NCBI RefSeq assembly: GCF_000006405.1
Contig: NW_003206658.1
Span: 675,341-739,340, forward strand
DNA from: Perkinsus marinus ATCC 50983
Taxonomy: Eukaryota > Perkinsozoa > Perkinsida > Perkinsidae
Length of the DNA stretch: 64,000 nt
Reading direction: 5' to 3'
A model generated the notes under the pieces. The model saw nothing but the letters and a program-made list of their open reading frames with translations, had not been told where the DNA came from and did not search any database. The position numbers and the translations under genes are program-made. This document shows, piece after piece, positions 49-64,000 of this stretch (position 1 is the first letter of the stretch; the number at the start of each line of letters is the position of its first letter).

Positions 49-3000
49 CTCCGCTCCAAGTTGATCACTGATATCCACTATACACCTCTTCATCTCAGCC
101 CAGAACTCTAGCGCCACTCCAAGGTCCTTCATTGGGTCCACACAGCATGCAAACTTCCTCCGAAGGTTCTCGTCAAAAGCCGCACGCTTCTCCGCACTAC
201 TCATCCTAACCAATCACAAATTCGTACTCCAAATCTTGCAATCTTGCTCTCCCTTACGGTTTCCTAGTTTGAGGGGCTTCCCATGACATGAAGTACTTCA
301 TAACAATACCCATACACGTTCTCGGGAGCATAAACACGGGAAGGACGGGAGACGGCCCGACTTCAGCCACACGAGGCTCCCGACGGTGGGGCTGAGAGTT
401 AAGGAAATGCAAGATCTATCAAGATTGCAAGATTGCCCTACCAATCTCTGTCCATTTGCATCTAAATCGCTTGGCAAGGGTCCATTCGGACTGAACGTGT
501 TATTCGGCAGCAACTTGATGAGAGACTTGTTTTCTATGAGGTCTTCAGTGAGACAAGATTCACATAGGACCCTTAACGTCCGTTTGAACAGCCTCACTAA
601 TGAATGGAAGGCGGCCAAGTCGAACTCCACTGTCGTATCCCAAAGATCATTCTTCAGCTTCATCGGAATAAGACTTGCAACTCTCGACAGCAGCGTTATG
701 CTTTTCTCCTTATCTGTCACCGTGTCGATATTCGGGTAACGGACCGCTGCAGGGAACTCGCTGCCGTCTACCGGCTCAAAGGGGTCTCCCGTCAATACGC
801 CGAATTTCATCAACTCCAGGGCAAACAGAGTGGGCTCCTGGAAGCGGCTTGGGGTATCCTTCAGCACGTCACCGAGGATGGTCATGCCGCCGTCTTCAGA
901 GAAGTACTCGAGAGACTCGAGCAACTGGAAATGGACCAGAGCCGAGAGGGAGTTCAAATCTTTAGGCTCAGCACGGGGACCAGCAGGGTTCCTCATATTC
1001 ACCACCAACGGACCATCCCGTTGGAATTCGTTCGCATGCCACTGCAAACAGAATCTAAAGTCGCTCATGCCTATATTCTCATACCACTCCTTCCCCAACT
1101 CACCTCAGATCAACAGTATTTACACCTTGTCTACGCATCTCAGCCTCTAGATCCTCCTTCGTGAACTTCCACCTCAAACCCTTCACATGAGGAATCCGAA
1201 TTCGACGTAGGTTCGGATCCTGACAATAACGACAATAAGATACCATTGCGCACAGCGAAGATTCTCCACCTCCCTATTCAGCGTGTAGAGCAAATGGGCC
1301 CTATTTGTCGTCGGAGTAGCACCCATCGGTGGACCGCCGCCTTGAGTCATCATCTGCTGCTGCTGTTGGGACTGAGCCAACTCCCCCACCTCCCAATAAG
1401 CAGTGCATATGATAGGCCGATCTCTCAGGGATGGGTTCAGCTTCTCAGCCATTATCCCAAGAGCCTTGGTCCGGTACTCGTTAGTTAAGTCGATAAGCAA
1501 AGACCTGTACTCCTTCGAATCAATCAGTGGGCTCTGTCGATCACACCAAACTCCCGTCGCCAAGACCAATGGAAGTCTACTGCTGATGAATCCCATCATA
1601 AGGAGCTCATAAACAGTCATTGGCAGTCTTTCACCCAACACTGTTGACATATCACTTGGACATACATGCGTAGGGGGGAATGATATCGGCATAAGAGTAG
1701 GAGTCTGTGTGCCATCAGGATTGCTTATGGTCATCTGAGGCGTGTTCTCCCCAGGTGGGCATAGATGAGGATTAGCATGACCCGATCCACAGGACAACGG
1801 ACGGACCTCCAAGTCGATCGTATTCAACACTGGAGTGTAGCACAAGAGCAGCTTGCATACACAATAGCCTTCAACGTGGTCATTGCGCATATCGTCCGTA
1901 GGGAACGTCTGCATCCAGGAGTTCAATGGGACTTGTCTGATGAACTCTATGGCGGTCTCGAAACTAAAGGCCCCCGCATGGTGAGCCGCCGCTGGAGGCT
2001 GATTCTCCCCACGGAATTGATCCAAATTGAGATAGGGGTAGGTAAGGCAATACTCAGTACCAGCCAATAGACATGCGTCTATGAACTGCTCTCGATTGAT
2101 GAACCATTTGCTCAGTACATGGTCCAGAGATACCCATTCAGCCTTGTTCCTGATCGGGGGGAGAAGTGATCGAACTTTGTCGCGCGCCACGAAATTATCC
2201 CTACTTTTGGAAGTCCATTTGCAGAACTACACTTTTCACTCCATACAAGAGAAGACCAGGAGGACCATAGACGACTTGACAGAGATTGTTGGCCGCCATA
2301 TAAGCCAGCTGAGCCGAGGCAAAGTAGCTGAATGGGATAAAATGCAGCATGCCGGGATCGAACCTGCGTCTATAGCCTACGGTGCTCGGATGACCTCGAA
2401 ACCCTTGGACTTCAAGAAGTGGAAGGCGAAGTGGCAAATGTCGCTATTAATACGACTGGTAGCAACCGCGAACGCCTTCTGGGCTCCGGAGTCATGCCCC
2501 TCAGCCGATAGTGTCCACGCCTGAAGAATATCTTTGGGCACGCCGTGTAAGATACAAAATAGGTCCGCTTAAGGCACTCTCAGTATCTACCTGATCCAAC
2601 TGCTGCTGACTGGATTGTTGAAACATTTGATGCTGTAGTGGAGGCACGATACCATCGAAGACCTACGATAGAGAACACACCGTCACGCGCCGCGAAATTC
2701 CCAACTTCATCAGTATCGAGTGAGCAACTTACGAAGATAGGCTTGATATTGTAGTGTGAGAAGAGCTCGAGCTCCTTCGCAATGATACCGAAAAGCCCTA
2801 AGTGAGGAATATGAATACAACATCCCAAGGAATAGAACCCGGTTCCTCCAGAGTGGCAGGAACTGTCCTTATCCGCTTGACCATTATCCCTACTACCAGG
2901 AGGCATTCCACCAAGAGCATCGGCATACGGGTCCTTCAACATTTGTATACTTCGCAACCAGAAAGTAGCATCCAAAGCCATCTTCATGTCACTCAACTGA

Positions 3001-10078: not shown

Positions 10079-12330
10079 CTAAAGCGCTCCCATAGCGATC
10101 ACCGGCAGTGGCTGCTGCAAGACAGATGCCATGCTCCATGAGTGCTCAGGTTGACCCGAACTCCGAGATTGACGCTTGTCTAAGACACAGCTTGAGGGAT
10201 TCCCCTTCGAATTGGTGATGGTCAGTCGCGCGTGGCTCTCCTGACGACCAACCAATTCCCATGGCGAATGGGCATCTGCAACCTCCACCAAGCCGTGGTG
10301 AAGGTCATAAGTACCGCTACTGACTCGAGCCGGCTGGCCCTCGAGCCGTGACCGCAGTCGGATGGAACGAGAGTCCCTGACTAACATCATCGCCATGTAG
10401 TCCCCAACAGCCCACGTCTTTTCTCCCTCAGTCATCTCGTTGCTCACAGCCACAGCTCCTCGTGGCTTTGCCTTCTCCTTACCCTCCCCGACCTCCTCAT
10501 CAAGATACCTCCATTGCCCGATGAGCGAGAGACAGCATCAACGGTACCCACTCTCGTAGAGACTCCTGCAAGGCAGCTTCCATCTGCCTGGCTTCTTCCT
10601 CCCGAGCCAGCCTACTGCCGTATGAATGTTCACCATCAGACGGTACCTGTCAATACCAACGACTTAAGGCCCTTCACAAAACCCTACCTTCTCCCAGTCA
10701 CGCCTCTCTCGTGTGTTGGCGATGACAGGATCAACTCTGGCCTGAGACATGCTGCTGCTGCTCACGAGGACTCGCCAGCTACTTGCCTGTGATGGTCGAT
10801 CCTTGAGGCCTCCACAGCCCTCCACGGACCATCTCAGCTCGCCTGAGGCAGTCGCCACCTGACTTCAGCAGGTCGATACCAGGACCAGTCATACCTCATA
10901 CGGCGGCATAGGGAGGCAACTGGGAGCCTGCGATGAACTCGGCAACGTAAACGCGGAAGTACATCGATCCATAGAGGATGCGGATGCTGTCCACACCTGG
11001 TTTGGCCACTCCGAACCAGACGACAAGAATGCGGCAGCACTCACCCGGTTGCTCGGCCTTGTACGCAACCCTTTCAGCAATTTCGTGGCGCGTGACGGTG
11101 GTTATAGTCACTCTATCCTTGCAGAACTGGTCCTGTGATAACGCAGTGAGGACGTTGAAAGTTCTTCGGGTAACCTGTAAGGCTGCTACTCTTCATCATT
11201 CTCACCGTCACCGTAACCCACCTCGAACACATCAGGACGGCCCAGATCACCGTGATAGCATCTATCAGAGGCTATCAGCACCTGCAGATAGTAGTAGTAG
11301 TAGTAGTATCTACGTTCCTTCTGAGAAAACTGCAATGTATCACATTGAAGGCGCTGCCTAGTGCGCGAATCTTCGCGGTGAGTCGCAATAGACTGCATTC
11401 GGCATCCAAGGCCCCATCATCGATAACAGGCTGAAAGATACCATTTCCTCCCTTCCCCTTATGAGGAGCTTCTACGTTGTACAGAACGTGGTGGGAGCCC
11501 ACGAGGTTAGGGTACTTCATCAGAAGCTTGAACAAGAGACCAGCGCCTTCGTAACAGGCCAGTACTCGGCACCGATTCACTCCCAACTCAGCCAGGACCT
11601 ACACCGCATCTGCTGACGATAAGCAGGTTGAGAGCAGAGCCTTGCATGGGAGATGGTGGAAGCATCCAAACGGTCAGGATGGCATCGTATATTCTGGGCA
11701 ATGCTCGACCTCCCGAAACCTGGTAGGTCTATAAACATGACGTTGAAGCCTTTCTTGTAGAGTCCAATGGCGAACTGAAGGCCAATGGGGCTGTCATATG
11801 TTGTCACTCGAAAGAGCTCACCATTACCTTGATCCAAGTCCAAGAGGTTGTGAGATTACCATAGTCGTGTATGGCCAGGACCCACTCCCCTTGTCGCTCC
11901 TGATGACCATAACCGCGGCCTCCCAGCACGTCCTCTCCTACTACTACTACCCTCCTTCTCCTCTGTGATCTCTCTCGAGCCTGACTCTCAGTCTTCGTCG
12001 TAGGTTGGAGTAGACACCTGTCAGGAACTTCCCATCCCCACACTAGCGGTCGCCGCTCACCGGACGAATATTTGGAAGTTTGTCGCAACGCTGAACTCAG
12101 CGACCTCCGTGCGAAGGTGCCCCATAAGGAACTTCCGTTCCTCCTCAGTGAAGGCTGGACCCGCCAACACACTCGATTCCGAAACTTCCGATATAACACT
12201 CATGACCTACACCGTATTATCAAGATCGCAGCACCGAGGCAACGGCACTTGAGAGCCGCCCAACTCCTGGAAGCGATGCCTACGGCCCTTCATAATCGGA
12301 GTAGCACTAAAGTAAACCCCATGTAGTAGT
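10079..12330 (-). CDS. Alpha/beta-hydrolase-fold protein, probably catalytically altered
   Basis: Exons read (5' to 3' on the minus strand) GEWVLAIHDYGNL, FAIGLYKKGFNVMFIDLPGF, ELGVNRCRVLACYEGAGLLF, then NLVGSHHVLYNV and more C-terminal exons, ending at the stop at 10079. The order strand, DLPGFG loop, helix, strand-elbow is the alpha/beta-hydrolase pattern. The elbow reads ACYEG where active members have GxSxG, so the Ser is missing. The N-terminal exon boundaries near 12200-12330 are uncertain. A 41-nt family A intron lies at 11071-11111. Confidence 0.55.
11071..11111 (-). repeat. Family A intron (antisense core)
   Basis: The core AATTTCGTGGCGCGTGACGG is on the plus strand at 11079-11098, antisense to the gene. 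The proposed intron GTGACTAT...GCTGAAAG is 41 nt and leads into RVAYKAEQPGECC. Confidence 0.6.
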
Positions 12331-12825: not shown

Positions 12826-15800
12826 CTTCTGGCACTTCACACTCACCAAGATCTGTTTTTGTAGTTGAAGTTTAGCTTCTAACTCCACCTCTAGTGCGAT
12901 GAGCTCGGGATTGTTGGAACTAGCTTCCGCTACAGCATCGGCCGTCACCGTTGTGAAAGGCCTCGTCGACTGCCGGTGACCACCATCGTAGGCCTCTGAA
13001 GAAGCTTGCCAAGTCCAGAGCCAATTTCGTGGCGCGTGACGTACCCATACCTGCCGTCATATCGTGTCCATCAACCTCTTCCTCCGGCGAACTCGGAGTG
13101 TCTGGTGCCTCCCCGACCACAGCGGCTGCTTTCTGCACAACACACAACCATCACCATCCATGATCAACTTTCAATGACCTACTGTTTTCTCCATTAATGC
13201 TGCTACCGCTCGAGAGACAGCCAGATTAGGTCTACTAGTAGCGGTAGCCTAATACAGCCACAACCCTGTCCAACATCGCTGTCTAGAACCTCACTTGTTG
13301 ATGCTTGGTCGCTTCCCTCAATTGTTCCTTCAACGCTGCGAGCTGCTCCTCCAACACTAACCGCCGACCGTATGCCTCTGCCCTTGCCGAACTAACCACG
13401 GCTAACAACAAAGCCTTGTCTTGAGTCCTTCCTCACCAGCTGTCCCCAGGATCCACTCTAGCCTTCTTCCTCTTGCTGCTGCCGCCACCGTCGGTGACCA
13501 TAGCCTCATCGAGGTTCTCCTCCACAGGGCACCACATGTCGCTTCGCACCAGGGATTCGACCATTGATCGCCCTACGATGATTCTCCATATACAGTGTAC
13601 TATGAACCAGCCATCGTACCGGTGAGGTAGGCCAGTAGGAGCTGCCGCTCGCGAGTGCTGTCTAATACGTCGATGCTAAACCTGTAGAAAATGCGGGTTG
13701 TGCGGATCGAACCCGGGACCTGTGATACTTGTTCGCAACGTCCTTAACTAGCTCTTGACTCCTCTGTACATCCGTACTAGCCCCAATCGGTAACGATCGA
13801 GATGCCATCAGCAGCCACAGAGAACCAATCGTCACCTACGCCACCCAAAAACGTCAAGCCCAGGATTCGTACCCAGGACCTCCGCTAGCACAGTCGAGGA
13901 CACTCCCTGCTACCCTGCAACTTTCTCCCTTCATATTGATGGCTCGCAAAGGCATAGGAAGCTCCAACGGCATGTCGACGTGACGAGATCCTCGACAACA
14001 GCGATCATATCACTCCGAAGCCCTATCCCTCCCTACTTGTAATCACCATTCTAACAGCAACTGCACCGTCACCACGAGCGACCAACTGCTGCCCAGTAGC
14101 GTTGCATATGCAGAAGCCTCGGTACAGCTGTAGCGCTCGTACAGATTCCAAAGTCTGTGGACTCAGAGACTTCCACAAGGCCGTCGTTGTGAACATCCGA
14201 ACCCCTAAAAAGGGAGCAATAGACAACATCGTCATCTAATAGCATCTTGCCTGACTCCTCCATACCATCATCCTTCCTACTCTCCTCAAGCTGAAGGGTT
14301 GGGGGTGTTGGAGTCTTCGGACTATGTGTTCGAATCCCCGGCTGCCAGTCTAGTTCAGTATCAAGCGCTGCTATTGCTGGCCGCCGCCGCCGCTGGCGAG
14401 ACGGTCTATCACCGTCCACCTAGCAAATAATATTGCACGCATGCACACGATGATGCCTTCCTACTTCACGTGTTGCCAACGACTCTGCCTCCTCCCCATC
14501 CCGCTGCAGTTGCTTGCGTTTCTTCAAGGTGTGGTATTCTTGCGCAGAGGGCAGCAACAACGATATCAAGTTTTTGTACGTGACGGCTGTCGGACGAGCG
14601 CTGCCTTGTGAAGACCTAAGGCGCGTATTCCATTTTCCTACAACCACATACTTACCCTTGTTGTTGATGATGATCAGCCTCTTGCAGCGGGTCAATAATC
14701 TGTTTGTTAATCATATTCCGCAACTTGACGTAGTCCTCTTGGCTGACTGCTCCCTCACCCTCACCACCCGACAGACAAGAGGAAGAGTCCTCATCAACAG
14801 GTCCAGGTCTTGTCGACATTACGATGTACTGATGGAGTGGTATCATACCATTGGTATGCACGCATGTGCATTCGATCATACTATAACACAAGACCTATCG
14901 TGAAGAAATGTCCCTCTTCATGGGGGGGGGTACTCACGCGGAAGAATTTGGTAAGGATGATATGTAATTCTGCAATGCAGTGAGACGATCTTCTTCTACC
15001 TAAAAATGCATCTGCCGGGAATCGATCCTGGGACCTATCTACCATAGTCGCTGCAGCCCGCAGCGCATCCGAGTTGATGCTGGTAGACGTCCGCTCAGCA
15101 ATGCGGGAATCCTGAGGTCGTGAGAGTCCGAATGCTTCCGAGTTTCTCAGCCAGTGACCGAATTTCGTGGCGCGCGACATCGTACTTCGGCACAGAGTTC
15201 GTACAGCTCCTTCCTCAGAGAGTTCACCGCCGCCGTGTAATTCAAAACCAAACTTGACAACTTCTGATCAGCATCGAGAATCGAACCAACTATCCTTCGA
15301 ATGACAAACTACACCAACAACCTACTCAACAACTTGACACACAAATTTCTACAGCCCCTCCCCCCCATACCACCTCGGAAACGTCATTGAGCTGCCCCGT
15401 TATCCGAGGCTCCTCCTCCGCCGCCGATGAGGACGACGATGACGCTGTTGAATCAGCCGTTACCGCATCGCTTCCCTCGATCAACTAAACGACAACCATA
15501 CTATCCATATACACATACCACATATACATACATATACAACTACATACATAACAACTATATATACCATATATATACTATAGCAGCACACACGTGCGTTGGG
15601 GGTAAATCTCCTGAGTTGTCTCACAATTTCAGAGTGAAGCTCAAGAGGGTATTCTTTCACAGCTCACTACAGCTGAGGAATTCCTATATCACCAATCACC
15701 AATGCTGTTCCGATAAGTTCTTCTAATAACGCACGACACCCTCTTCATGTTTACATGTATTACCACTTCGTGTAGCCGATCAATGAGAGTTGCCAAGGTC

Positions 15801-29070: not shown

Positions 29071-30689
29071 TCAGTTGGACTTGTCGTCATCATCATCATC
29101 AGTCCAACCTCCGATGTCCTCGAGTCGCACTACCCGCCGTACCTTTCTTGGAGGCTGCCTTACTTCAACTACAGACTCCTCCGACACCGACACACTCTCG
29201 GTCGTTTTGTCACTTTCTGTATCGGATTCGCTCGTGTCATTGAACAGTATCTGTCCCTTCTCTGGCGCCAGACTAGCAGCCTTTAACCCAGTGGTTACTA
29301 CGTCCGCCCGAACCTTAGCCTTCAATCGCCTATCCAGCTTCGCTCGTGCGTCTATAAATCCCCTCCCTTGTCCTAGTAAGCCACTCACCAGCAACAGGCT
29401 CTGACCATTCCGCTCACCCGAGCATATGGTGAGGTAAGCGTTGTCGAAGGCTTGTATAACGTGAGGGTAGTCGAATGTGCCACGGCCGAGGTCGATAGAG
29501 GAATCTTCGGGACTTTCGATGCTGATAACCCATGATGGATTCTCTCGGGGGAAGAGGCTAGCCTGTTTAGCAGACCCATTCGGTGGACGTAAGCCGAGCT
29601 TCTTATAGTTCATATCGTTGGAGTAGAGACGGAAGAATTCGAACAGGAGGTGACCGAGTGAAGCCTTACGCCAATGTTCAGGACTTCTCGCACCTAATTA
29701 ATTCGACCTCCCAGATACAACAATGGTAGAGCATTCACATAACAATCAAATGGTCCAAAGTTCTATTCCCGCATCCTCCCTATTACCATCGCTCAAATGT
29801 AATCCACATAGTAGCATCGTAAACAGCATGAAACTGCCGATGCCCCCTTTGTACGGCTCGCTCAAGCCTCGTATGGACAGAAACAGTTTAAGGAACTGCG
29901 AGGAGGAAGCCGATAACGCCTACCATAAAGAGACCCCCATTACCATCAAAAGAGGCTTCAGTTGAGGCATTTTCTGGCAATTGGCTACCACCCATTCTCC
30001 GCTCTTCGTGACAACTCCTTGCAGCCCAAAAGCCACGTCCACCGAAAAGCCGCTACGACGGTCGATGAACTTCACTATTGGCACTCGAGCGGTGTCGATA
30101 ACGTGAATATGAGTGGCGATTTTAGACACATGAAGAGCCTTAGCGAACTGATTCATGAGTAACTTTAGATTCTCCCGAACATGGTTCGGTCCTGGCAAAC
30201 GCTGAATCGCCAGATCGATATCACCATCAGGTAGATTCAAACCGGTCCAGCTAGAGCCAAACTCCACTACAACAGCCTCTGGCCACAGTGCGTTGGTGAT
30301 GGCCCTCACGTCGAGAACGATCTTACGGCGCTCCTCCTTCTCTTGAGGTGTCGCGTCGAGCCACTTACCAAAGGCGACCAATTCCGAGTGTAAAGCCAGC
30401 ATTGTAGGAAGGCTCGGATCGGGGGTCTTCCACGGCGCACCACCACCCTGCTCGAATTTATCGGCCGAGACGTAGTCAGGCGCGACGTCAGGAAATGAGG
30501 ATTCGGAGGACGGTCGAGTGGACCGACGCCGCTCAGCTAATGCATGACGGAAATTGTCGTTGAAGACGATCTGAAGTTCATCGTCAAGTCAACGTCACTG
30601 CGCCACGAAATTACTACCTGTTTCTGCTGCCGCTTCAGATCGGCCTCCAGTACAGGATCGTGGAGCAAGTCATCGATAGAGGCCATCAT
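29071..30689 (-). CDS. Non-canonical poly(A) polymerase, TRF4/PAPD5-PAPD7 type
   Basis: ATG 30689 begins MASIDDLLHDPVLEADLKR. The nucleotidyltransferase signature is present: FGSSWTGLNLPDGDIDLAI (hG-S and the first two Asp), then SVDVAF for the third Asp. The PAP-associated region follows with SIRGLSEPYKGGIGSFMLF, LGHLLFEFFRLYSNDMNYKK and RGTFDYPHVIQAFDNAYLTI. The C-terminal tail is acidic (GGWTDDDDDD). TRF4-type enzymes add short A-tails in nuclear RNA surveillance; that role is inferred. Introns: 30537-30617 (family A), about 29921-29968 and 29694-29786 (tRNA-like, antisense). Confidence 0.85.
29694..29786 (-). repeat. Family B tRNA-like intron in the poly(A) polymerase (antisense)
   Basis: A 93-nt intron between LHLSD and GARSPEHWRKASLG. 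The plus strand reads TGGTAGAGCATTC (A-box-like), then CAAAGTTCTATTCCCGC (B-box-like), a nearly full-length tRNA-like order. Confidence 0.75.
30537..30617 (-). repeat. Family A intron in the poly(A) polymerase (sense)
   Basis: An 81-nt intron beginning GTAGT directly before the core (30593-30612, with CGCAGTG for CGCGTG) and ending GCATTAG. Confidence 0.75.
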
Positions 30690-33074: not shown

Positions 33075-40452
<7,378 letters not shown>

Positions 40453-48553: not shown

Positions 48554-50244
48554 ATGCAGAGTGGAGTAGTAGTGAACAGTACGACCGCTACTGAGCCTTC
48601 GAATGCTGATCCTGAGGACTCTGGCAAATATGAGAAAGTTAAAGTAGCTGTTGAGGGGGTCCTCTCGAAGGAATACTTGAAGGTAGTAATAATAAGATGG
48701 TCAAAGTGTGTGGAGTTGATGCTTCGTAGAGCAACCCTTCCTTCGCCTCTCGTATGAATGCCCAGATGTATATGAGCTTGGACAGCCTATTCAAGTAATA
48801 GGGGTATGGTAGGAAGGAGTTGTATGTGTGGTGGTAGTGTGAAGGCTATTGAAGACCTTAACACGACCGTTGAGGAGATCGCTGATGCGATATCATCGTT
48901 GGGGTCGTCGAAGGTGGCATTGGACTCGACTCGGACTTTGATTAAGCCGGTCATACCTGAGTTGCAGCGGAGAACAACACTCATTGTGAGGTAGTGTATG
49001 GGGATTTGGTGTAGTGGTATGTATATGGTTGAGGAATCGGGAGGTCGTCGGTTCTATTCGAGGTGAGTCATCATCGAGTTTATTTCAGAGACGTCGATTC
49101 GAAGTCCCTATCAATAGAGGACTTTAAGACTGAGGTATTGAAGGATGCCCCGTGTGATAAGGATGCTATACTTGATATCCGCCCTGATGTTAACGACCAT
49201 TGGTACTACTACTACTACTGCCAACAACAACACCCCCGACTATCACTCATTAGGTATGTCCGATTCACTACAGAGGATGCGTGTGAGGATGTCGCATTAT
49301 GGTTAAGGAATAAGAAGTATAATGACAAGCCGATACATACAGCTGTTAAGGCTGAGCATTTCATGCTTACACTCTTCCCTAACCTTGACAAGACTTCCGA
49401 GGCTTCCCGCTCCCCTGCTTTGAGTAAGCCTCTTTCCTCCTCCTCCTCCACTCCACGTCACTACTACTCATCATCATCAATCCATCAGGTGCCAGCAGCC
49501 CCGCGTTCGTCCCTAGCTCTCCTGGGACCCCGTATCAAGGGTAAGCCGACCATTAGCAGTTGTAATGATGAGGTGGACCTCGTTCTCCACGTGTTTAGGT
49601 ATTCTTCTTTCAACCCCTACGCCGGTGTGGACCAGTATGGATATTATCATCCAGCTGGTTCGAAAGGGAAGGGTAAAGGCAAGGGTAGTAGTAGTAATGA
49701 TGATGATATGACTCATACAACTACTCCTTTTCTGTTGCTTAGGTAAGGGAGGTCGAGGGCGTAGACGTATGAGTAGCAGTGGGGCAGCGTCGATTGGCGG
49801 TTGTTCTATAGTGGAGGAGGTAGGTACCCTTTGGTGGGGCTCCTGTTGGGGCTAACTTACTAGTGTCAGATGATTAACCCGGCGGACCTAGCAGGTGATG
49901 AGACGAAGTATAAGTATGAGTATAGGAAGTATACCAAAAATGAGATACAACACCTATGCGAGGGGATGCCAGCGGAGGCACTTTACAAACCAGAAGGGAT
50001 GGTGAAGGTAACTGGACTGTTACGGAACGTCGATGGTGAACGTGAGCTCCTCCTTCCTCTCCTCAGGCTGAGAAAGAAGTCGGTGAGGGTCTTATTAGAG
50101 ATACTCCTAATAGGTAGGTAGTTGCTACCTTCTTGGGTTACCTTCTACTTCCGACTTAGGGAATGGATAGTTGAGGGAAGTCCCATGGGGGGCGGACGAA
50201 AAGCATCGACGGCAACAGCAGCAACAGCAGCAGCAGCGAAGTGA
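48554..50244 (+). CDS. La-related protein (La motif + RRM), paralogue 1
   Basis: Starts MQSGVVVNSTTATEP. The La motif begins at VLSKEYLK and runs through SLDSLF, IEDLNTTVEEIADAISSLGS and LIKPVIPELQRRT. The RRM follows: TTLIVRDVDSKSLSIEDF ... HWYVRFTTEDACEDVALWLR. The C-terminal part has FNPYAGVDQYGYYHP, a Lys/Gly-rich run (GKGKGKG) and EYRKYTKNEIQHLCEGMP, ending in a poly-Ala/Thr tail. LARPs bind RNA, often poly(A) or oligo(U) ends; specificity unknown. Introns: 48991-49088 (tRNA-like), 49202-49254 (TAC-rich) and others. A second copy lies 0.6 kb downstream in the same orientation. Confidence 0.75.
48991..49088 (+). repeat. Family B tRNA-like intron in LARP paralogue 1 (sense)
   Basis: A 98-nt intron at codon phase 2 (GTG-AG^). 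It contains TTTGGTGTAGTGGTATGTA (A-box-like) and GTCGTCGGTTCTATTCGAGG (B-box-like). The matching intron of paralogue 2 (51316-51364) has neither. Confidence 0.8.
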
Positions 50245-50854: not shown

Positions 50855-52793
50855 ATGGAAAATACCAATAATAGTACGAATGCAGGGTCGTCGCCCACTG
50901 AAGATGCGGATAAGGTGAAGAAGGATGAGCTTATCAAAACAACAGTGGAACGTGTTCTCTCTAAAGACAACTTACGGGTAAGCAGCTGTAATGGGGAGGT
51001 CCTCTTGTTGTGCATCATTATCATCATCAATGACGACCTTTTAGAAAGAGCCCACCCTGGTGTCTAACATGACCTCTCAAATGTACCTGCCTATAGCGAT
51101 TCTATTCAAGTAAGTGTTGTTGTAGTAGTAGTCCTATAATGGTGGTCATGTATGGTCCTTAGTCTTGGTGCTGTCTCTGAGCTTAATACAACCCCTGAAG
51201 AGTTGGCTTCTGCTATAGCCTCCCTTGGGTCGGACAAGGTGACATTGGACCCTACCAAGACTCTTATTAAGCCTTGCTTACCGGAACTACAACAAAGGAC
51301 TACTCTGATTGTCAGGTAGGTGCTCTTGTTGATGATTGTGGTTTAGTGATGCTGCTGATTTCAGAGACGTCGATTCGAAGTCCCTATCAATAGAGGACTT
51401 TAAGGCTGAGGTATTGAAGGATGCTCCGTGTGATAAGGATGCTATACTTGATATCCGTCCTGATGTTAACGACCATTGGTACTACTACTACTGCCAACAA
51501 CAACACCCCCGACTATCACTCATTAGGTATGTCCGATTCACTACAGAGGATGCGTGTGAGGATGTCGCATTATGGTTAAGGAATAAGAAGTATAATGACA
51601 AGCCGATACATACAGCTGTTAAGGCTGAGCATTTCATGCTTACACTCTTCCCTAACCTTGACAAGACCCCTGTGGCTCGTACCCCTACGAGTAGGTGTGG
51701 AATTTCGTGGCGCGGTGAAGTTTTTTCTCGGTAGGTGCTCTAGGGTATGGCAAACCGCAAAGTGTCCAGCAGAGGTAAGATGTCGGCGATTACTATCAGG
51801 TCGGACGGATTTTGAACAGTTACAACCCTTATTCCGGTGTGGACGAGTTTGGTTATTACCACACCAAAGGGAAAGGGAAGGGAAAAGGTAGGAGGGGCCC
51901 TCAAGGGAGGGACTATTGTTGGTCCTTAGGTAAGGGCAAGGGCAAAGGGAAAGGTGGTAGGCGTATGAATGGTCCAGTGGAACAGGTAGGAGCAGAAGTT
52001 GTGGAAGGTGTGGTATTGGCTTGTTTTCAGTACGGCAGTAGAATTTCCGTGGTTGAGGTGGACTCGGCAGTGGTCTCTTATGGTTTGAAGTATCCCCCGC
52101 AGGTCAGTTTCGGACCTATTTTGAATCTTTGAGTATCTTATTATTATTGTAGGCGGCTCCTAGTGGTGGTATGTCGGCGGTCGAGATGGACTCTGCTATT
52201 GTATCGTACAGTCTGAGCACGCCTACTCCTACTCCTCCTGCTACTGCCGAGCGTAAGAGCTCGGCAGCTGGCCCCATTAGCATGCCCGAATCGGAGAAGG
52301 AAATCAAGGTAGGGTAGTGGTTGGATGAGGCTGTGAGCCTTATTCATTTAGTATGTTATCGTCATTTACTGTCGTTTTCTGATGTGATATTATTTTCTAA
52401 TGAAGATATGATTGGAGTATTATGTTTATTATAGCATATCTTCGCTGGTCACTCTATTTCAGGAAAAGTACCCTGATATCACTGGTGATGAAACTAAATA
52501 CAGCTACGAGTATCGTAAGTATTCCCGTAAAGAGATAGAGGCGATCTGTGATAAGATGCCGGCAGCCGCCCTGTACATGCCCGATGGTATGGTGAAGGTG
52601 AGTGGGGTCCCTTGAGGTTGTATAGAGTAGTATGTATTAGATTGAACGACAGCTTGGGGAAGGTGTCTTCCGTAAGACCCCATATAGGGAATGGTTACGT
52701 CAACAGCCGAGTAAGAAGGCAACAGCAGTTACGACGAGCAGTAAAGAGGGGAAGGCCGCCGCTGATGTGGTCACGACGACAGTAGCGGCATGA
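50855..52793 (+). CDS. La-related protein (La motif + RRM), paralogue 2
   Basis: Starts MENTNNSTNAGSSPTEDADK. The La motif (VERVLSKDNLR ... IASLGSDKVTLDPTKTLIKP) and RRM match paralogue 1 in order. The RRM exon pair with its intron (51361-51668) is nearly identical to 49085-49395. The C-terminus has NSYNPYSGVDEFGYYH, GKGKGKG and YEYRKYSRKEIEAICDKMPA, ending VVTTTVAA-stop. Introns: 51316-51364, 51479-51527, 51691-51734 (family A) and 52103-52152 (family C). Outside the near-identical tract the copies differ clearly in protein and intron sequence. Confidence 0.75.
51316..51364 (+). other. Short intron orthologous in position to the tRNA-like intron of LARP paralogue 1
   Basis: A 49-nt intron GTAGGTGC...GATTTCAG at the same codon and phase (GTC-AG^A-GAC). 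It carries no tRNA-like motif. Confidence 0.8.
51691..51734 (+). repeat. Family A intron in LARP paralogue 2 (sense, degenerate 3' end)
   Basis: GTAGGTGTGG directly followed by AATTTCGTGGCGCGGTGAAG (51701-51720) and ending CTCGGTAG. Paralogue 1 has coding sequence, not this intron, after LDKT. Confidence 0.7.
52103..52152 (+). repeat. Family C intron in LARP paralogue 2
   Basis: A 50-nt intron GTCAGTTTCGGACCTATTTT, then GAATCTTTGAGTATC, ending ATTGTAG. Confidence 0.7.
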
Positions 52794-53210: not shown

Positions 53211-54579
53211 ATGTCCTCAACGCTAGTATTCGACGGAAGTGTGGTATGATATGTATGACATTGTGTGGGCAGAGACTAAGTTGATGATGATGAGATTGGG
53301 TGTTATGCATGGTGAAGGAGAAGTTTGTATTGATAGAGCTGGGCAAAGCAGCAGGAGGAGGCATTGTTAGTTGGATGCTGCTGCTGCTGCTCATGAAGTT
53401 GCTATTGTTGATTCGTCAACCATGTCGCTATTATGAAGTACACATTGAGAGTTGTATAGGATGCTCGCTTAGTTGTAGGATTGGCGGTTGGTGGCTCTCC
53501 TCGAGGCCATTATGAGCTGCTCTGGGTCTTGGCACTTATATCTACTTCTTTCCGGAGAAGGAGATGCTGAGATTTTGAGGATCTATGGGTCAATTTGCAA
53601 TTGTTTCAAAGGTTTTTGAGTGAACTTGCTCATCAGTTGGGCGGAGCGAAGCAGTAGGGTGGGTTTGATATTTTCTCACTTCCCCTGGCTTGATAAGGGA
53701 CGGCGAGGTTGGTGCCTGGGGGATTTTCTGGCAATTCTGAGGCAGTTGGAGTGAAGAGGCCGAAGTGGCATGTTTGAAGTTTCTATCTATCATGTGCATG
53801 CGTGCTAAAAGATATGACGTCGTTTGTATCAAGTTTGGTTGAGTTGAGGATAGCGGACTGGGCGAGGCTTTGGGAAGGAAGACGTCGTTTTCTGATGGAA
53901 AAACCGAAAACTGCGGACCGAATAGAGGCTCTAGCAGAAGAGGTCATTGACATGCTTGGGCAAGTGAGGGTCTCGACTGAAGAGGAGGAGGAGACTGATT
54001 GGACCGCTGAGACTCGTAATGTGGCATTCCTCCGTCACGCGCCACGAAATTATTCAGGAAAATGTCTGTCGTTGATGGCCGGTAATGTAGCAGCCTCAAT
54101 GGGAGAGGCGACTACAGTAGAGGTCGCCGCGGCTGTACAGAGGAAATTGGAGGGGCATCGGACGGTGGAGGAGGGGGACAGGAGCCCGTCGATAGCAGTA
54201 GAGGAGGAGGAGGAAGGGTTTTGCCAAGATGGATTTTTCTCGGAGGTGAGGACACTTCTTTTATTGCAGTCCCGAAGAGGTGTTGGTATCGTGAATAGTT
54301 ACCTCTATCGGTGAACTTACGAGTCTTGAATTACCTCGATCCAACTGAAGGGGAGTATAACACCTTTGCTGGGGTGTGTCGGGCTGCTTGTGTGGCTACT
54401 AATATGCAGCTTGAGTGAGTCTCTCAGGAGGAGGGGCGTGAAAGTACTTTATCATTGCCAGATACATTTACTTGATCGTGCGTATTATCCGATTCGTGGT
54501 ATTTGGTCCTAGTGTTGAAGAAGATGATGAGGAAGAACCGTCGGGCTCGACAGCAGCTTCTGATGATTTACTTTCCTAA
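53211..54579 (+). CDS. Unassigned protein, acidic C-terminus
   Basis: Starts MSSTLVFDG and, after a 34-nt intron rich in GTGTGGTATG (53239-53272), continues KTKLMMMRLGVMHGEGE. Later exons: SSLVELRIADWARLWEGRRR, ADRIEALAEEVIDMLGQ, NVAASMGEATTVEVAAAVQR, LNYLDPTEGEYNTFAGVCRA and the acidic end VEEDDEEEPSGSTAASDD-stop. Intron 54016-54057 is family A. A family F copy lies at about 53640 in a longer intron. No family recognised; the exon order between 53330 and 53800 is uncertain. Confidence 0.45.
54016..54057 (+). repeat. Family A intron (antisense core), 42 nt
   Basis: GTAATGTGGCATTCCT, then the core in reverse complement at 54032-54051, then ATTCAG. The length is a multiple of three with no stop, so splicing and retention both keep the frame. 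Confidence 0.72.
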
Positions 54580-57300: not shown

Positions 57301-57702
57301 AGATGAGTTCCCCCCTTGGGTGGTGTCCTGGCAGTGACCAACAGTCTCCTCTTCCTCCTCCTTGCGATGTTGCTCGCATTTCTTCACAGAGTATTCGGTA
57401 GTAGGTATGTCCCTGTTATTTATGTTATGGGAGTTTCACCGGTGATATGAAAAACACTTGTGAAAAAAAAACGCATTTCACGACTACTGTGTAGCGCGAA
57501 TATCGCGTTTTTCACCGAGTTTTACGCTACCTCACGGAAAACGGCTGAGACTCCATTGTTTTTATCGTTAAACGATCTACATATGAATAGTATCGATATT
57601 GAAGTAGTATACGTAATATTACAGAAATTGAATCTATGTGGTATGAATATGTCGATGACACGGGGGAATAAAGCGTCGTGAAAGGTAGTTGGTTTTTGTT
57701 CT
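57301..57702. other. Intergenic (divergent), nothing recognised
   Basis: Upstream of DNAAF11. An A run and GCGAATATCGCGTTTTTCAC lie near 57470-57515. Possible shared promoter region; no defined element. Confidence 0.35.
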
Positions 57703-60097
57703 AATGCCAGCATTGACGGAGGAGTTGATCAGAAAACGCGCGGAACACAACGAGGGCATCTTGGCAGATCTCGAGGAAGTAGTAGATTATCATTACCAAT
57801 TAGGTTGACTCTAATGTGAACTCTCCTAACCGCGTGCCGTGAAATTGCATTCATGGTTTTAGATAGCTTTGCACCAGGAGGAGATTGAGAAAATAGAGAA
57901 GTGTCTGGGCGAGCGCTGTCGTCGTATAAAGATACTCCTACTGCAGAACAATGTGATTGGAAAGTTGGAAAATCTCAATAAACTTAAGGAGTTGGAGTAC
58001 CTCAATGTGGCAGTGAATAACATTGAAAAAATTGAAGGTAATAGTGTCTGTGGAAGGGATCGAACCTGGGTACTCTGGCGGTTTCTATTATCGAGCGTCC
58101 TGGGGGTAATTTCGTGGCGCGTGACGGTTGTTGAGTAGTAGGTTTGGAACGCTGCGAGAGTCTGAGGAAGCTGGATCTTACGGTGAACTTCATTGACATT
58201 GAGAATCTTAAAGGCTCTATTACTAATTTGGAGGTATCTTTTGCACGCATGCGCACGATGGATTCCATTGGTGATGTTTTTAGGGTAACTACAATCTCGA
58301 GGATTTATATCTTCTTGGGAATCCTTGCATGGACTGGTCTAAGGCGAGGTAGAGGGTTAATACCACATTTCTTTCACTTTGTGTTTGAATGCCTCCTTCG
58401 CTAGGCAGTATGTAGTAGCGAGACTGCCTAGCTTGCTCCAACTTGACGGTACTCTGGTCACTCCCACCGAGAGGATACAGGTATCTATCTGCACGCATGC
58501 GCAAGGGTATCTTAGGTTGACCATGGTTTAGGCTAGACGAGAGCTTCCAAAGCTGGAGGAGGAGTTGGAGAGGCTTTCGGACTTCTCTATTAAGAGAAAG
58601 AATTATGAGAGGGAACACGGGATAACACCAAGCGAAGGTGGTGGCATTTCCAGCGTTGTTATTTTCGGATATCCAAAGGCGAATTTGCACATATGTAGTC
58701 GTATATAGTCTCTTCTTGTGAGGCATGCGCCTACATATTTATAGTAGCTCTCGTCCATAACAGAAAGCATGTTTGGGTGATAGGCTTCGTAGTAGTGTTG
58801 GTTTGCCATGCATGTTTATGGAACCTCCATTGTGATAGGAAGAGGCAGGGATGGAGAGTTGTCTGTATATTCGGCGTAGATAGGGGGGAAGGAAAATACC
58901 ATGGTAGATGCCTATACCAAGGAGTCCCGACTGGAGATGTATAGGGAACAGGGTGCCGCTAAGGAGGAGAAGAAGAGGAGGGAAAGGAAGAGGCTAGGTG
59001 ATCATCATCATCGGATAATGGCCGCATCGCTCCGCTGTTGAGAATTTACTAATAATAGGTTTGGAAGCGAAACCTCCTCGGAAGGTGCCGGAAGTGATGA
59101 ATCAGCGAGGGGAGGTGGGGAAGTGAGGGTAGCCTAGAATTGTGGTATCGAGGATCGTAGTGTGAGGGAAAAGGCACAATCTCGTTACAAGCGTAGTGGC
59201 GTCGTTAAGGGCATTTTCCATGGGTTGCCGTATTCGAAGTGATAGTGCCATATATTGTGTGCATGTCCATGAGGAAGTAGGGCGTGGAATCGAGTGTTCG
59301 ATCTGGTGCTTCATTTGCTAATTTTAATGTTCATTTAGATGAGACATGTTGTTGCTAGGGATCGATCCGGGGACCTTTGGGTTTAGATACGTCAGTGTAA
59401 TGAAGGGAAGTATAACTTCCATATTGATGAGTTTGGTACTCCTGGGATGGTGGTTATGGAGATAGACATACCGGCTTTCATGGACACGAGTTTTATCGAT
59501 GTGGACATCCAACCTAATTATGTTAGGTATCTCTTGTGCACGCGTGCATACCGCAATTCTTTCAACTCGTAGTTGTTCATGGCAGGTGTGTTATCAAGGA
59601 GAAGCTGACGCAGTTGCGAACGCCGTGTGAGGTCGTGGTCCATGCGTCTACAGTGAAGAGAAGCAGCACGACGGGCGCTCTAAGGTGAGGATACGTTAAC
59701 GGGTTAGTATGTCATACTCCATAGGGAGTGGTTGTCCGTTCGATCCCGTCAAGTGACATATTGTATTGTTTAGAATAGAAATGCCCCGTGCTGATCAATC
59801 AGGAATGCTAAGAGTGAAAGAAAAAGAGGAGAAACCCAAGCAGGTGAGCAATCCTTCGTTAAGGAATCAGGTTGGAGAGCAAGTGGTCGGAAGTCTCATC
59901 CTTAGACTACTACATCGTCTCGTGTGAGAGGGAGCGACGGAAAAGAATCAAGCGGAGCGAAGTTTTTGCCGTTGAGCAAGAGTGTTTCTCTGAGGATCGT
60001 TAGGGATGTTGAAGGGGATACTCTGATGAAGGAAGTGCATGATGAATATGATGAATCAGATGTGCCGCCCTTGGAGGCTATTTCGGCCTATTACTAG
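57703..60097 (+). CDS. DNAAF11: Dynein axonemal assembly factor 11 (LRRC6 / tilB)
   Basis: Starts [20 protein letters not shown], as in LRRC6/tilB. LRRs: [80 protein letters not shown]. Then [10 protein letters not shown] and [20 protein letters not shown]. The C-terminal CS-like domain reads [35 protein letters not shown] and [20 protein letters not shown], ending [13 protein letters not shown]-stop. A cytoplasmic factor for preassembling outer and inner dynein arms of motile cilia. About eleven introns, e.g. 57779-57862 (A), 58038-58141 (B+A), 58234-58283 (E), about 58349-58401, 58481-58531 (E+C), 58636 to about 58907, about 59000-59059 (F), about 59123-59404 (B), 59527-59585 (E), 59695-59773 (B), 59844-59980 (F). 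Confidence 0.9.
57779..57862 (+). repeat. Degenerate family A intron in DNAAF11 (antisense)
   Basis: An 84-nt intron with CGCGTGCCGTGAAATT at 57831-57846, a diverged reverse-complement core. It joins ADLEE to [10 protein letters not shown]. Confidence 0.6.
58038..58141 (+). repeat. Composite B + A intron in DNAAF11
   Basis: A 104-nt intron. Its first part has AAGGGATCGAACCTGGGTAC (antisense tRNA T-arm-like); its second part has the exact 20-nt family A core at 58108-58127 in sense. Removal restores [14 protein letters not shown]. Confidence 0.85.
58234..58283 (+). repeat. Family E intron in DNAAF11
   Basis: A 50-nt intron GTATCTTTTGCACGCATGCG ... GTTTTTAG. It joins SITNLE to [12 protein letters not shown]. 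Confidence 0.82.
58481..58531 (+). repeat. Composite E + C intron in DNAAF11
   Basis: A 51-nt intron with CTGCACGCATGCGCA (family E), then GGGTATCTTAGGTTGACCAT (family C), ending GGTTTAG. It joins ERIQ to ARRELPK. Confidence 0.82.
59527..59585 (+). repeat. Family E intron in DNAAF11
   Basis: A 59-nt intron GTATCTCTTGTGCACGCGTG ... TCATGGCAG inside the CS-like domain ([11 protein letters not shown]). Confidence 0.8.
59695..59773 (+). repeat. Family B tRNA-like intron in DNAAF11 (sense)
   Basis: A 79-nt intron with GTTAACGGGTTAGTATGTCA (D-arm-like), ACTCCATAGGGAGT (small hairpin) and TGTCCGTTCGATCCCGTC (T-arm-like). It joins TTGALR to [10 protein letters not shown]. Confidence 0.8.
59844..59980 (+). 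repeat. Family F intron in DNAAF11 (sense)
   Basis: A 137-nt intron GTGAGCAATCC ... TTGAGCAAG with TCAAGCGGAGCGAAG at about 59948-59962. Confidence 0.72.
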
Positions 60098-60134: not shown

Positions 60135-60153
60135 GATTTTGTGGCGCGTGACG
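60135..60153 (+). repeat. Family A core, intron not resolved
   Basis: GATTTTGTGGCGCGTGACG, two changes from the core, between DNAAF11 and the next gene's first confident exon. Probably in a 5' intron. Confidence 0.55.
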
Positions 60154-60186
60154 CTTTACAGTTATTGGTCGTTATTTATATGGAGC

Positions 60187-61163: not shown

Positions 61164-61172
61164 GCGCTTCTG

Positions 61173-62156
61173 ATGGTAGCAGTCGAGTGTATTACATTTC
61201 TCTGTCGTATTACTTTCGCCTCGCTACTTGAGGGGTTCCTCAGTGCTATAATGGTGATGGTCGGCAACGTTATATCTGCTGATGGGTCGCCCCCGGTCTA
61301 CTCCAACCAACATCGTTCTGGAGAAGGCAGCATATCTTGTTTCTCTAAGGAGGCTATGGATGGCCTAGTGGATATCCTACAGAAGAGGTTGTTGAGGCTG
61401 TTGGTGAGATTGGGAGTAATGGAAGTGCTCGCAAGTGTTGCTGTTGTCAGTACGTGTCAGGACAGTAGACTTTTTAGTGAGCAGCTGTGGTTGTCAGTCC
61501 GACCAGCTCGAGAGTATAGCACTCCCTGTCCGTCCCTCTGGCGTCAACCTGTTGTATTGCAATCAAGGGAGTTGTGGGAGATATCTTACGTGGCAGTGGC
61601 GAGGGAGATGAGGGGGTGCATCAAGAGCATCCAGGAAGACCCTCCACCGTCATTGGCCATCGAGAGTAGTGCGAGATCGGTGTTGCTATCGCTTGCTGGT
61701 ATCCCTCCTGTACTCACCGAGATGAAGGCAATTTCGTGGCGCGCGGTAGAATATGTGCCTTGTGATGTAGAGAAGCACCACTTGAGGGAGCTTAAGTCGT
61801 TGCCAAGACCTCATCCGGTCATCCACTTGATTGTGTCGATTGTCCCCATGCTGCTCTGGGGCGTCGACACATTCCTTCCATGGCAAACACTAAGGCAGGA
61901 GGTCCTTGGCCTGGCTGATGAGCTCATATTAGAGATGGCAATGTTCTGTCCGAGAAATAATGAGAAATCCGACGGAGCGATACGAGCTGTGATAAATGAT
62001 CTTAAAGGGCGTGGGCTGGAGAGCCCATCGGATGTCGGCCCGATTCATACTGCGGCAGCTGTGCTCTTCGAGTGGGTCTTATTGGCGTATGAGAAGAAGA
62101 AGACAACGACACGAAGTAGCCGAGAGATGGTAGGGGATGCGGCAGGAGCAGGCTGA
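61173..62156 (+). CDS. Protein with a dynein-stalk (microtubule-binding-domain)-like C-terminal half
   Basis: A long ORF of 327 codons. The C-terminal half reads LRELKSLPRPHPVIHLIVSI, then AIRAVINDLKGRG, HTAAAVLFEWVLLAYEKK. The order xELKSxxxPPxxV...SxAAxxLxxWVxxxxxY is that of the dynein heavy-chain stalk/MTBD, but no AAA module is present. It may be a stand-alone MTBD-like ciliary protein, which would fit its place next to DNAAF11, or the resemblance may be partial. The true start is uncertain. A family A core lies in frame at 61730-61746. Confidence 0.45.
   Translation: MVAVECITFLCRITFASLLEGFLSAIMVMVGNVISADGSPPVYSNQHRSGEGSISCFSKEAMDGLVDILQKRLLRLLVRLGVMEVLASVAVVSTCQDSRLFSEQLWLSVRPAREYSTPCPSLWRQPVVLQSRELWEISYVAVAREMRGCIKSIQEDPPPSLAIESSARSVLLSLAGIPPVLTEMKAISWRAVEYVPCDVEKHHLRELKSLPRPHPVIHLIVSIVPMLLWGVDTFLPWQTLRQEVLGLADELILEMAMFCPRNNEKSDGAIRAVINDLKGRGLESPSDVGPIHTAAAVLFEWVLLAYEKKKTTTRSSREMVGDAAGAG
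61699..61749 (+). repeat. Possible family A intron that is also in-frame and stop-free
   Basis: GTATCCCTCCTG ... GCGCGGTAG, 51 nt, with the core start AATTTCGTGGCGCGCGG. Spliced or retained, the frame stays open. Confidence 0.5.
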
Positions 62157-62279: not shown

Positions 62280-64000
62280 ATGCTCAGTAAAGCTTGTATG
62301 ATGCGGCCTGGATCGTCGTCGTCGGCGGCATTCGTTAGTCAGTTGTCCGCAAGTAGTGTCATAGTTAGTCGCACTGCCACCCGGTCGCCGCCGGTCTTCA
62401 TCATGCCTCGGCGAAATGAATCATCGTTTATCCGACAGGTAGAGCATGTGGTTACTAATGCATAGGCCGTGGGTTCAATTCAATGTCGATCCTTTTTTCA
62501 TCCCAGGTTATGGAGCAAGTACGGAAGGACGCCGAGAACGATCCAGCACTAAAGAAGGCTTTGGACGATATGGACAAGACCAAAACACGAGTAGTATCAA
62601 TTTCGTGGCGCGTGACGGAGATCGTCATGACAGAGTCGTTGGTCTGATGGATACTTTTATCGCGGGCTATTCAATTCAGAGTCTTCGGTGTCGTTTGAAT
62701 TTGGTGGCGCGTGACGCTTGGCTATGCTTTCACCATTGTGAATGTCCCTCAGGTATCGGATACAGGAGAGCAGTTGCGTACGCGTGCAGAGGCCCAGGAG
62801 GCTCGGATGCGTGCCATGCGGCAACATATGTCGAATGCGCAGTAATGATGTAAAGGAGGTGCCAACCTCAATCGTGTTGGGCTTGTCAGGCAGCGTACAA
62901 AGAATCTTTTTGAAGAACTCAGAAAACAGATGCCCCATGGCAAGGCCGAGGAAGAAGAAGAAGTGAAACCATCAAGATTGAGCCAATGTAATAATAAATG
63001 TTGTGCTCGAAGCTGGTCGAAGCTCAGTGTAGAATGATGATGGTAGGGGGGAGTCCAGTCAGCGTTGGGACGATCTCAGCAGTGGTGGGGTCTTCTTTCT
63101 TCGGTCCTGGCATGTCTTCGCAGCAATATACACGTGTCAGTGACAATATGGAAGCTCTGGGGAACTTTTGGGAAAATTTCGCTGGTTCCTGGCCGAATTC
63201 TTATATAGCGCCCTATAATTAGTGAGGGAACTCTCGAGCTTAGCTTAGGAGAGCGAAAGTATTTTTCAATGACGCTGTTGCTTCACACTGTAAAGATTTG
63301 CTTTTATGGATTCTTCTGGTTCTCCTCAGTGCATGTTCCTGATTGGATGAAGACGGCAGGAGAGAGTGCTAAGCAGGTTGGAGTTAAGGTAGTGATCTCG
63401 GAGGTCCCGGGTTCGATCCCTAGGGGGCGCACTTTTCTACCTAGGCATTGGACCGCACAACAGCGTTTGTTAATATGATGACGAAGGAGAGCAAGGAAGG
63501 CACCGCCAAGCGGCAGGAGGAATTCTACCGCTCCCAAGAGGTGCATATCATCATCAATCGTTTCAATGTCGGTATTCATGTGTCTCTCAGGCGGCCCGAC
63601 AGGCTGCCAAGGACGAGGCGATACGGGAGGCAGCTGCTGAGGACCCCAACGTAAGGAGGAGGAGAATTCAGCGCCCCACTGACTTCGAATGTCACTGATT
63701 GTGCTCTTAGGCTGAGCCCATCCCTGAACACCCCCACGCCAATGCGTTGGTCGTCTCGGATAAGCAGCGGTCGACTTGGGAGCGATTCGGCTTCAACACG
63801 AGTGATTCTGAGGATTCGAAATTCCTAGGTGGCTTTTTTGAGAACCCCATGCTTGACAGGTAGGCCGCCTTTAATTGGATGCTCTTTTCGTTGTGCTGGA
63901 CTAACTCGGTTGTCAAATCGGGCACTAGTTACGGATGGGAATCGGGGAAGTGTCCTCCCTGGGGGAGTTATTGCAAATACCGGAATGATGGGTCAGTGAA
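62280..64000 (+). CDS. Tim44-like mitochondrial import subunit, C-terminal domain outside window
   Basis: The N-terminus MLSKACMMRPGSSSSAAFVS is rich in Ser/Arg with no acidic residues, as in a mitochondrial presequence. After splicing: ESSFIRQVMEQVRKDAENDP, ALKKALDDMDKTKTR, EQLRTRAEAQEARMRAMRQH, RVGLVRQRTKNLFEELRKQM, ESAKQALDRTTAFVNMMTKE, NALVVSDKQRSTWERFGFNT and FLGGFFENPMLDR. The helical N-terminal part followed by ALVV..xxWxxF and ENPM fits Tim44, the matrix-side scaffold of the TIM23 motor. Introns: 62439-62506 (B), 62591-62752 (A twice), 63377-63444 (B) and others. The C-terminal domain would lie beyond 64000. Confidence 0.6.
62439..62506 (+). repeat. Family B tRNA-like intron in the Tim44-like gene (sense)
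   Basis: A 68-nt intron GTAGAGCATGTGGTTACTAA ... CATCCCAG with CCGTGGGTTCAATTC. The intron's own 5' splice site (GTAGAGC) lies in the A-box-like part. It joins ESSFIRQ to VMEQVRKDAEN. Confidence 0.8.
62591..62752 (+). repeat. Intron with two family A cores in tandem
   Basis: A 162-nt intron GTAGTATC ... GTCCCTCAG with cores at 62599-62618 (exact) and 62699-62717 (one change), about 100 nt apart and both sense. It joins DKTKTR to VSDTGEQLRTR. Confidence 0.82.
63377..63444 (+). repeat. Family B tRNA-like intron in the Tim44-like gene (sense)
   Basis: A 68-nt intron GTTGGAGTTAAGGTAGTGAT ... TCTACCTAG with GGTCCCGGGTTCGATCCCTA, an exact B box. It joins ESAKQ to ALDRTTAFV. Confidence 0.82.

What the first reader, a model, noticed from the sequence alone, without database searches (positions are those of the whole stretch)
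2150..62752. Family A: a 20-nt core shared by introns of unrelated genes, in both orientations
AATTTCGTGGCGCGTGACGG or a near match occurs 18 times: 2179, 2680, 11079, 13023, 15161, 30593, 31576, 34962, 41779, 42585, 51701, 54032, 57831, 58108, 60135, 61730, 62599 and 62699. Where protein homology fixes the splice sites the core lies inside a short GT-AG intron, some only 37-49 nt. About ten copies are sense and seven antisense to the host gene. In most copies the AATTT end faces the nearest splice site: just after GTAG/GTAAT when sense, just before YYCAG when antisense. A random 20-mer would not recur once in 64 kb. This fits introner-like elements, known from other protists, algae and fungi. 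I do not know this sequence as a described family.
Basis: partly seen in the sequence, partly recalled or inferred. Interest (0 to 1): 0.95.

Follow-up and report, generated by a model that had tools for sequence, protein, structure and literature searches.

The report
Dispersed 20-base motif, partly in introns
A Perkinsus species, a protist of the oyster-parasite group, carries hundreds of copies of one 20-base DNA word, some of them inside tiny introns; it looks more like a conserved docking site on DNA than like a mobile intron.

Summary
The core is real. The genome, a Perkinsus species, has 589 copies at up to 2 mismatches and 708 of the first 13 bases; reversed controls give 0. Protein homology puts five window copies inside GT-AG introns of 47-89 nt.

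It is not an introner in the usual sense. Only about 20 nt are shared, without splice sites, flanks or target-site duplication. A paralog has an intron at the apparently same place without the core. Elsewhere a copy is coding, inside a Sen1-like helicase, without added length; the P. olseni protein has the same peptide.

Variants sit at a few fixed positions; copies cluster at gene scale. I favour a constrained protein-binding DNA motif (0.47) over an ultra-short mobile unit (0.25). Excess in introns beyond the window is only weakly supported: one rough gene-model test positive, another not.

The parts
2177..2196 (-). core copy, class GCGACA, sense to the MKT1-like gene
   Evidence: 3 mismatches; in intron 2150-2204
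2150..2204 (-). 55-nt GT-AG intron of the MKT1-like gene holding the core
   Evidence: DFQKNKAEWV continuous in P. olseni P0007 and P. marinus P0008; same alignment in dinoflagellate transcript proteins; coordinates
2680..2699 (-). core copy, sense to the MKT1-like gene
   Evidence: 1 mismatch
2663..2732 (-). 70-nt GT-AG intron of the MKT1-like gene holding the core
   Evidence: junction KPIF|VFDG
11079..11098 (+). exact core copy, host feature unresolved
13023..13042 (+). core copy, antisense in a predicted intron 12996-13050 (-)
   Evidence: gene model only
15161..15180 (+). core copy, class GCGACA, host unresolved (gene finder: antisense in an exon)
30593..30612 (-). core variant with one extra base (GCGCAGTGACG), sense
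30571..30617 (-). 47-nt GT-AG intron of a TRF4-like poly(A) polymerase gene holding the core
   Evidence: KRQQKQIVFND continuous in P. chesapeaki P0001 and P. marinus P0002
31576..31595 (+). core variant with one extra base, host unresolved
34962..34981 (-). core copy; possible 37-nt intron 34949-34985
   Evidence: gene model only (the gene finder drew 34933-34985)
41776..41795 (-). core variant, antisense to the GALNT-like gene
41715..41803 (+). 89-nt GT-AG intron of the GALNT-like gene holding the antisense core
   Evidence: junction GDM|VMFLDCH aligns without gap to GALNT12 (6pxu); exons joined by eye
42585..42604 (+). exact core copy, sense to the GALNT-like gene
42574..42622 (+). 49-nt GT-AG intron of the GALNT-like gene holding the core
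   Evidence: junction NKIR|TVEVWFDEW aligns without gap to GALNT12 (6pxu)
49424..49488 (+). core-free intron in paralog A of a duplicated gene, apparently at the position of 51691-51734
51701..51720 (+). core variant (GCGCGGTGAAG), sense
51691..51734 (+). 44-nt GT-AG intron in paralog B holding the core
   Evidence: inferred from the paralog
54032..54051 (-). exact core copy, antisense in a predicted 42-nt intron 54016-54057 (+)
   Evidence: gene model only
58108..58127 (+). exact core copy, host unresolved; a B-box-like motif lies about 41 nt away on the other strand
60135..60154 (+). core copy with 3 mismatches, host unresolved
61730..61749 (+). core variant (4 mismatches) inside an open 327-codon frame; exon or intron unresolved
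62599..62618 (+). exact core copy; possible 43-nt intron 62591-62633
   Evidence: the gene finder calls it exon
62698..62717 (+). core copy with 2 mismatches, 99 bp after 62599, host unresolved

Best explanation
The core is a cis-acting DNA motif of about 17-20 bp (AATTTYGTGGCGMGYGAC plus two loose bases). It is most likely the recognition site of a sequence-specific DNA-binding protein of this Perkinsus species, kept by selection inside gene bodies and in other DNA. It works at the DNA level, since both orientations occur. It sits where it does least harm: in short introns and non-coding DNA, and now and then in an exon. Shown: the repeat, its limits, its variant spectrum, its clustering, five homology-fixed introns, one coding copy. 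Inferred: selection, the binding protein, and its role (regulation of the host gene or chromatin organisation).
For: Nothing is shared beyond the core: in 34 exact copies only positions -1, +20 and +24 exceed 0.35 bits; weak preferences only in 78 copies. Among 26 inexact copies (up to 4 mismatches) 56 of 62 mismatches fall on positions 5, 14, 17, 18 and 19 (numbered 0-19); the other six are at 0 (2), 6, 7, 12 and 16; ten positions have none (even spread rejected). Genome-wide, against 291 copies of AATTTCGTGGCGCGTGAC, position 5 varies in 104 (95 of the 100 listed are T); positions 10/12 vary in 55, and of the 16 such rows listed 15 are 12A, 1 is 12T, none is at 10; positions 1-3 together vary in 25. 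Both 5T and 12A occur together 10 times, about 18 expected if free. Clustering: among the first 100 of 708 places, 25 of 73 same-contig gaps are within 3 kb against 3.8% expected, 15 of 25 on the same strand. In a 10-unit tandem array the core has 3 of 200 changes, the spacer part compared 18 of 360 (P 0.04). A coding copy in a Sen1-like helicase adds no length, and its peptide NFVARDA is shared with P. olseni.
Against: 14C and 18A are fully linked (18A in 10 of 10 copies with 14C, in 4 of 62 without): two discrete classes, which also fits subfamilies of a copied unit. No binding protein is identified. No nucleotide sequence of a second Perkinsus species was available, so DNA-level conservation is not shown; NFVARDA may be kept for protein reasons. 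The array test is marginal, and without the last unit it is not significant (2 of 180 against 10 of 324, P 0.23). The rise of some 700 near-identical sites by point mutation alone would need strong selection. The 'AATTT end near a splice site' tendency (5 of 6) is not predicted by this model.
Confidence: 0.47

Rival explanations
1. An ultra-short mobile or templated DNA unit of about 20-26 bp that is copied into introns and other DNA, in some cases seeding new introns from neighbouring splice sites.
For: About 700 near-identical copies without shared flanks; two linked classes; arrays with different periods, 58-59 bp and about 41-42 bp (spacings); local clustering; sharp AATTT end lying near a splice site in 5 of 6 supported introns.
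Against: No target-site duplication: best P 0.0005 among 3,240 combinations, exact repeats of 2-8 nt only; unit far shorter than any mobile element known to me; no added length at the coding copy; an intron without the core at the apparently same place in a paralog; very uneven variation along the unit.
Confidence: 0.25
2. Remnant or subterminal transposase-binding repeat of a larger DNA transposon.
For: Two inverted-repeat structures carry the core in their arms: L036 5053-5110/7684-7627 and L046 3291-3545/4354-4112.
Against: In 300-bp flanks of the copies held, no extended repeat runs through the core apart from segmental duplicates, the L035 array and these two structures, though several flanks contain other dispersed repeats; neither structure was shown to be a transposon.
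Confidence: 0.12
3. A splicing or RNA-processing signal read in the pre-mRNA.
For: Copies sit near splice sites in several short introns.
Against: Occurs in both orientations, in an exon and in a tandem array that the gene finder leaves intergenic; the intron of paralog A and another MKT1 intron, 2328-2380, lack it.
Confidence: 0.08
4. A classic introner family: whole introns that are copies of one another.
For: Copies inside short introns of unrelated genes, both orientations.
Against: Intron sequence outside the core and the splice sites are not shared.
Confidence: 0.04

Closest known systems
Introners / introner-like elements (survey PMC9860276, passages read)
   Same: Copies in short spliceosomal introns of unrelated genes; both orientations; an aquatic protist.
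   Different: Only about 20 nt shared, not the intron; splice sites not part of the repeat; no target-site duplication; an intron at the apparently same place lacks it; one coding copy. The main text of the survey does not contain 'perkins'; its supplements were not seen.
Amoebophrya introner elements (PMC7789003, passages read)
   Same: A relative within Myzozoa; motifs of 8-20 nt near intron ends.
   Different: There, inverted repeats between the two ends of one intron and direct repeats of 3-5 nt over the boundaries, often with non-canonical splice sites; here one motif, canonical GT-AG, no such repeats noticed.
Long, information-rich protein-binding sites such as CTCF sites or the CENP-B box (recalled, no call)
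   Same: About 17-20 bp, fixed and tolerant positions, many copies, some in tandem repeats.
   Different: Sequence differs; no binding protein known; found inside gene bodies and in local clusters.

Membership tests
Introner / introner-like element | Many similar copies in introns of unrelated genes | tested here: met
   Three unrelated genes with homology-fixed introns, a fourth by paralogy; 708 copies of the 13-mer genome-wide, most of them not assigned to introns or exons
Introner / introner-like element | Similarity runs over the intron up to the splice sites | tested here: not met
   Only about 20 nt shared
Introner / introner-like element | Insertion created the intron (absent from the homologous site) | tested here: not met
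   One locus only: paralog A has an intron apparently at the same place without the core; other loci not testable
Introner / introner-like element | Transposon hallmarks (target-site duplication, terminal inverted repeats), present in many families but not required | tested here: not met
   No duplication above chance in 75 copies; inverted repeats with the core in both arms at two of the loci examined
Introner / introner-like element | Presence/absence polymorphism or recent gain | not testable with these tools
Three duplicate pairs have the core in both members (L003/L024 and L041/L049; L045/L046), but were found by searching for the core
Protein-binding DNA motif | Fixed and tolerant positions without shared flanks | tested here: met
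Protein-binding DNA motif | Free combination of tolerated bases | tested here: inconclusive
   5T+12A 10 against about 18 expected; 14C and 18A fully linked
Protein-binding DNA motif | Conservation at orthologous sites | tested here: inconclusive
   One peptide-level case, NFVARDA in P. olseni
Protein-binding DNA motif | A protein that binds it | not testable with these tools
   no binding data

The most novel reading that the evidence does not exclude
A self-propagating unit of only about 20 bp that spreads by templated copying, even by replacing host sequence without changing its length, into introns and now and then exons. It would be the smallest dispersed selfish element and a seed of intron sequence.
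Probability: 0.14. Interest if true: 0.92.

Novelty: new variant of a known kind. Interest (0 to 1): 0.58.

Why it matters
If the motif is a binding site, it is a long and very specific one, in a lineage where I know of little about cis-regulation (recalled), and it would show selection on DNA inside tiny introns and across codons. If it is copied instead, the unit is far below the size of mobile elements known to me. The same comparison, orthologous introns in other Perkinsus genomes, decides between the two. It is also a caution: a shared word inside introns is not by itself evidence of introners.

Tried and rejected
tRNA or other known RNA: ARAGORN found 1 tRNA in all sequence then held and none at a core; Rfam gave 0 hits at the curated threshold in the window and in 16 of the 30 loci fetched, and in the window at E up to 10 only 11 matches, all below their curated cut-offs. 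I considered an A-box resemblance of TGGCGCAGTG and dropped it: the spacing does not fit most copies (by eye).

Phage or bacterial origin: 0 exact matches in viral contigs; 2 in prokaryote genomes, one in each of two unrelated records.

Ab initio gene finding: a home-made HMM gave a modest excess in introns (12 of 54 copies; controls 2,484 of 32,260) and a deficit in exons (7 of 54; controls 10,773 of 32,260), with 10 copies of the L035 array left out. With the core masked it gave less: 8 of 64 in introns and 13 of 64 in exons, and intron posterior above 0.5 in 9 of 64 against 117 of 1,283 controls. A splice-pair test gave no difference (54 copies, 860 controls, P 0.11). Of the three homology-fixed copies it scored, the HMM gets one right (2680) and two wrong (2177 as exon, 42585 as intergenic), so I do not lean on it. 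Donor-like words rise only mildly next to the core (75 copies).

Empty sites: a search with 14 of the window's 64 kb returned repeats and one paralog, 98% identical over 313 bp, whose identity ends before the core. C79 and C202 differ by a 4.3 kb insertion, not by the core.

Full report
ORGANISM. The window lies at C137:675341-739340 of a 54.46 Mb genome in 347 contigs. The window's MKT1-like protein is 92% identical (aligned columns) to a P. olseni protein and 89% to a P. marinus one. A TRF4-like poly(A) polymerase is 83% identical to P. chesapeaki, and 98% identical over 78% of its length to P. marinus. So it is a Perkinsus species; I do not name which.

THE REPEAT. Genome-wide there are 589 copies at up to 2 mismatches, 708 of the first 13 bases, and 230 of the last 13; reversed controls give 0. 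The window is exceptional: 13 copies of the 13-mer against 0.83 expected per 64 kb. Copies cluster: of the first 100 of 708 places (those the tool lists), 25 of 73 same-contig gaps are 3 kb or less against 3.8% expected, none lies between 3 and 5 kb, and 15 of 25 close pairs are on the same strand.

WHERE IT LIES. Five window copies are inside introns fixed by proteins: two in the MKT1-like gene, one in the poly(A) polymerase, two in a GALNT-like gene, one of these antisense. Lengths are 55, 70, 47, 89 and 49 nt, all GT-AG. A sixth, 44 nt, is in paralog B of a duplicated gene. Paralog A, 98% identical over 313 bp just upstream, has a 65-nt intron in what looks like the same place without the core. 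The identity ends about 25-30 nt before these introns, so their homology is inferred from frame and position. Four more introns are predicted only; seven copies are unresolved. My gene finder puts 12 of 54 copies in introns (7.7% of controls), 7 in exons (33% of controls) and 35 in unassigned DNA (59% of controls). It is unreliable (1 of 3 homology-fixed copies right), weaker with the core masked, and a second test found no difference.

A CODING COPY. In L048 (C233) a core with one mismatch encodes NFVARDA next to the IIDEA motif of a Sen1-like helicase. The stretch between TLS and IDEA has 17 residues. Of 91 proteins listed that fit the pattern, P. olseni included, it has 14 residues in 8, 16 in 68, 17 in 12 and 18 in 3; most of the closest relatives have 17. 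The motif therefore most likely did not arrive there as an inserted block.

SHAPE. In 34 exact copies and in 78 exact or inexact copies nothing beyond the core is conserved apart from mild preferences upstream (G-rich, hardly any A at -1) and at +20 to +25. Some copies continue with AAT (10 of 46 exact ones), giving an imperfect dyad AATTTCGT...ACGGAATT. Variation is confined to a few positions: 5 is mostly C or T, 12 C or A, 14 T or C, 18 G or A, 19 free. 14C always comes with 18A (10 of 10), so there are two classes. Target-site duplications are not seen. Most held copies were fetched because they match the core exactly, which inflates exact counts; the genome-wide pattern counts do not suffer from this.

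READING. A whole-intron copying model is contradicted by the unrelated remainder of the introns. A constrained DNA motif explains the lack of shared flanks, the fixed and tolerant positions, both orientations, gene-scale clusters and the coding copy. An ultra-short copied unit explains the linked classes, the arrays and the end-near-splice-site tendency, but not the coding copy unless copying can replace without insertion. I put the first at 0.47 and the second at 0.25. No function was tested.

LITERATURE. Full-text searches for AATTTCGTGGCGCG (0 papers), TTTCGTGGCG (12 papers, none by title on this subject), Perkinsus with introner (one paper, on Amoebophrya), and Perkinsus with genome, intron, repeat or motif terms listed no paper that by title or abstract start describes such a motif; beyond the listings only passages of three papers were read, PMC7789003, PMC9860276 and PMC9399869. 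The library is open-access only.

Noticed in passing
window 2354, 31919, 40530, 42233, 58056, 63410 and others: A second dispersed motif: 34 GGTTCGANYCC entries in the loci held (one palindromic place counted on both strands). Spaced conserved positions match my numbering of a tRNA 3' half (44, 48, 52-62, 72-73) followed by TTTT, yet ARAGORN finds only one tRNA. One lies in MKT1 intron 2328-2380.
   Followed up: partly
window 33280, 34426, 42432, 48481, 53651, 59962: A third dispersed word, CTTCGCTCCGC followed by T or C, after an A-rich stretch: 27 non-redundant copies in the loci held.
   Followed up: partly
window 36097-39693 (-): ORF of 1198 aa with a reverse transcriptase domain, best PDB matches R2 retrotransposon proteins.
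   Followed up: no
L045 4266-8603 against L046: Two near-identical contigs (99.7-99.8%) differ by a 4.3 kb insertion with a 9-bp overlap that looks like a target-site duplication.
   Followed up: partly
L035 2580-3127; contig C43 17616-17872: Arrays containing the core with different periods: ten cores at 58-59 bp and five on C43 spaced 42, 41, 115 and 42 bp (places).
   Followed up: partly
window 49082-49394 and 51358-51667: A 313-bp tract 98% identical between two tandem genes whose other alignable pieces are 69-75% identical, as after gene conversion.
   Followed up: no
window 57430-57560: A repeat of about 130 bp with dozens of relatives genome-wide, often several per locus.
   Followed up: no
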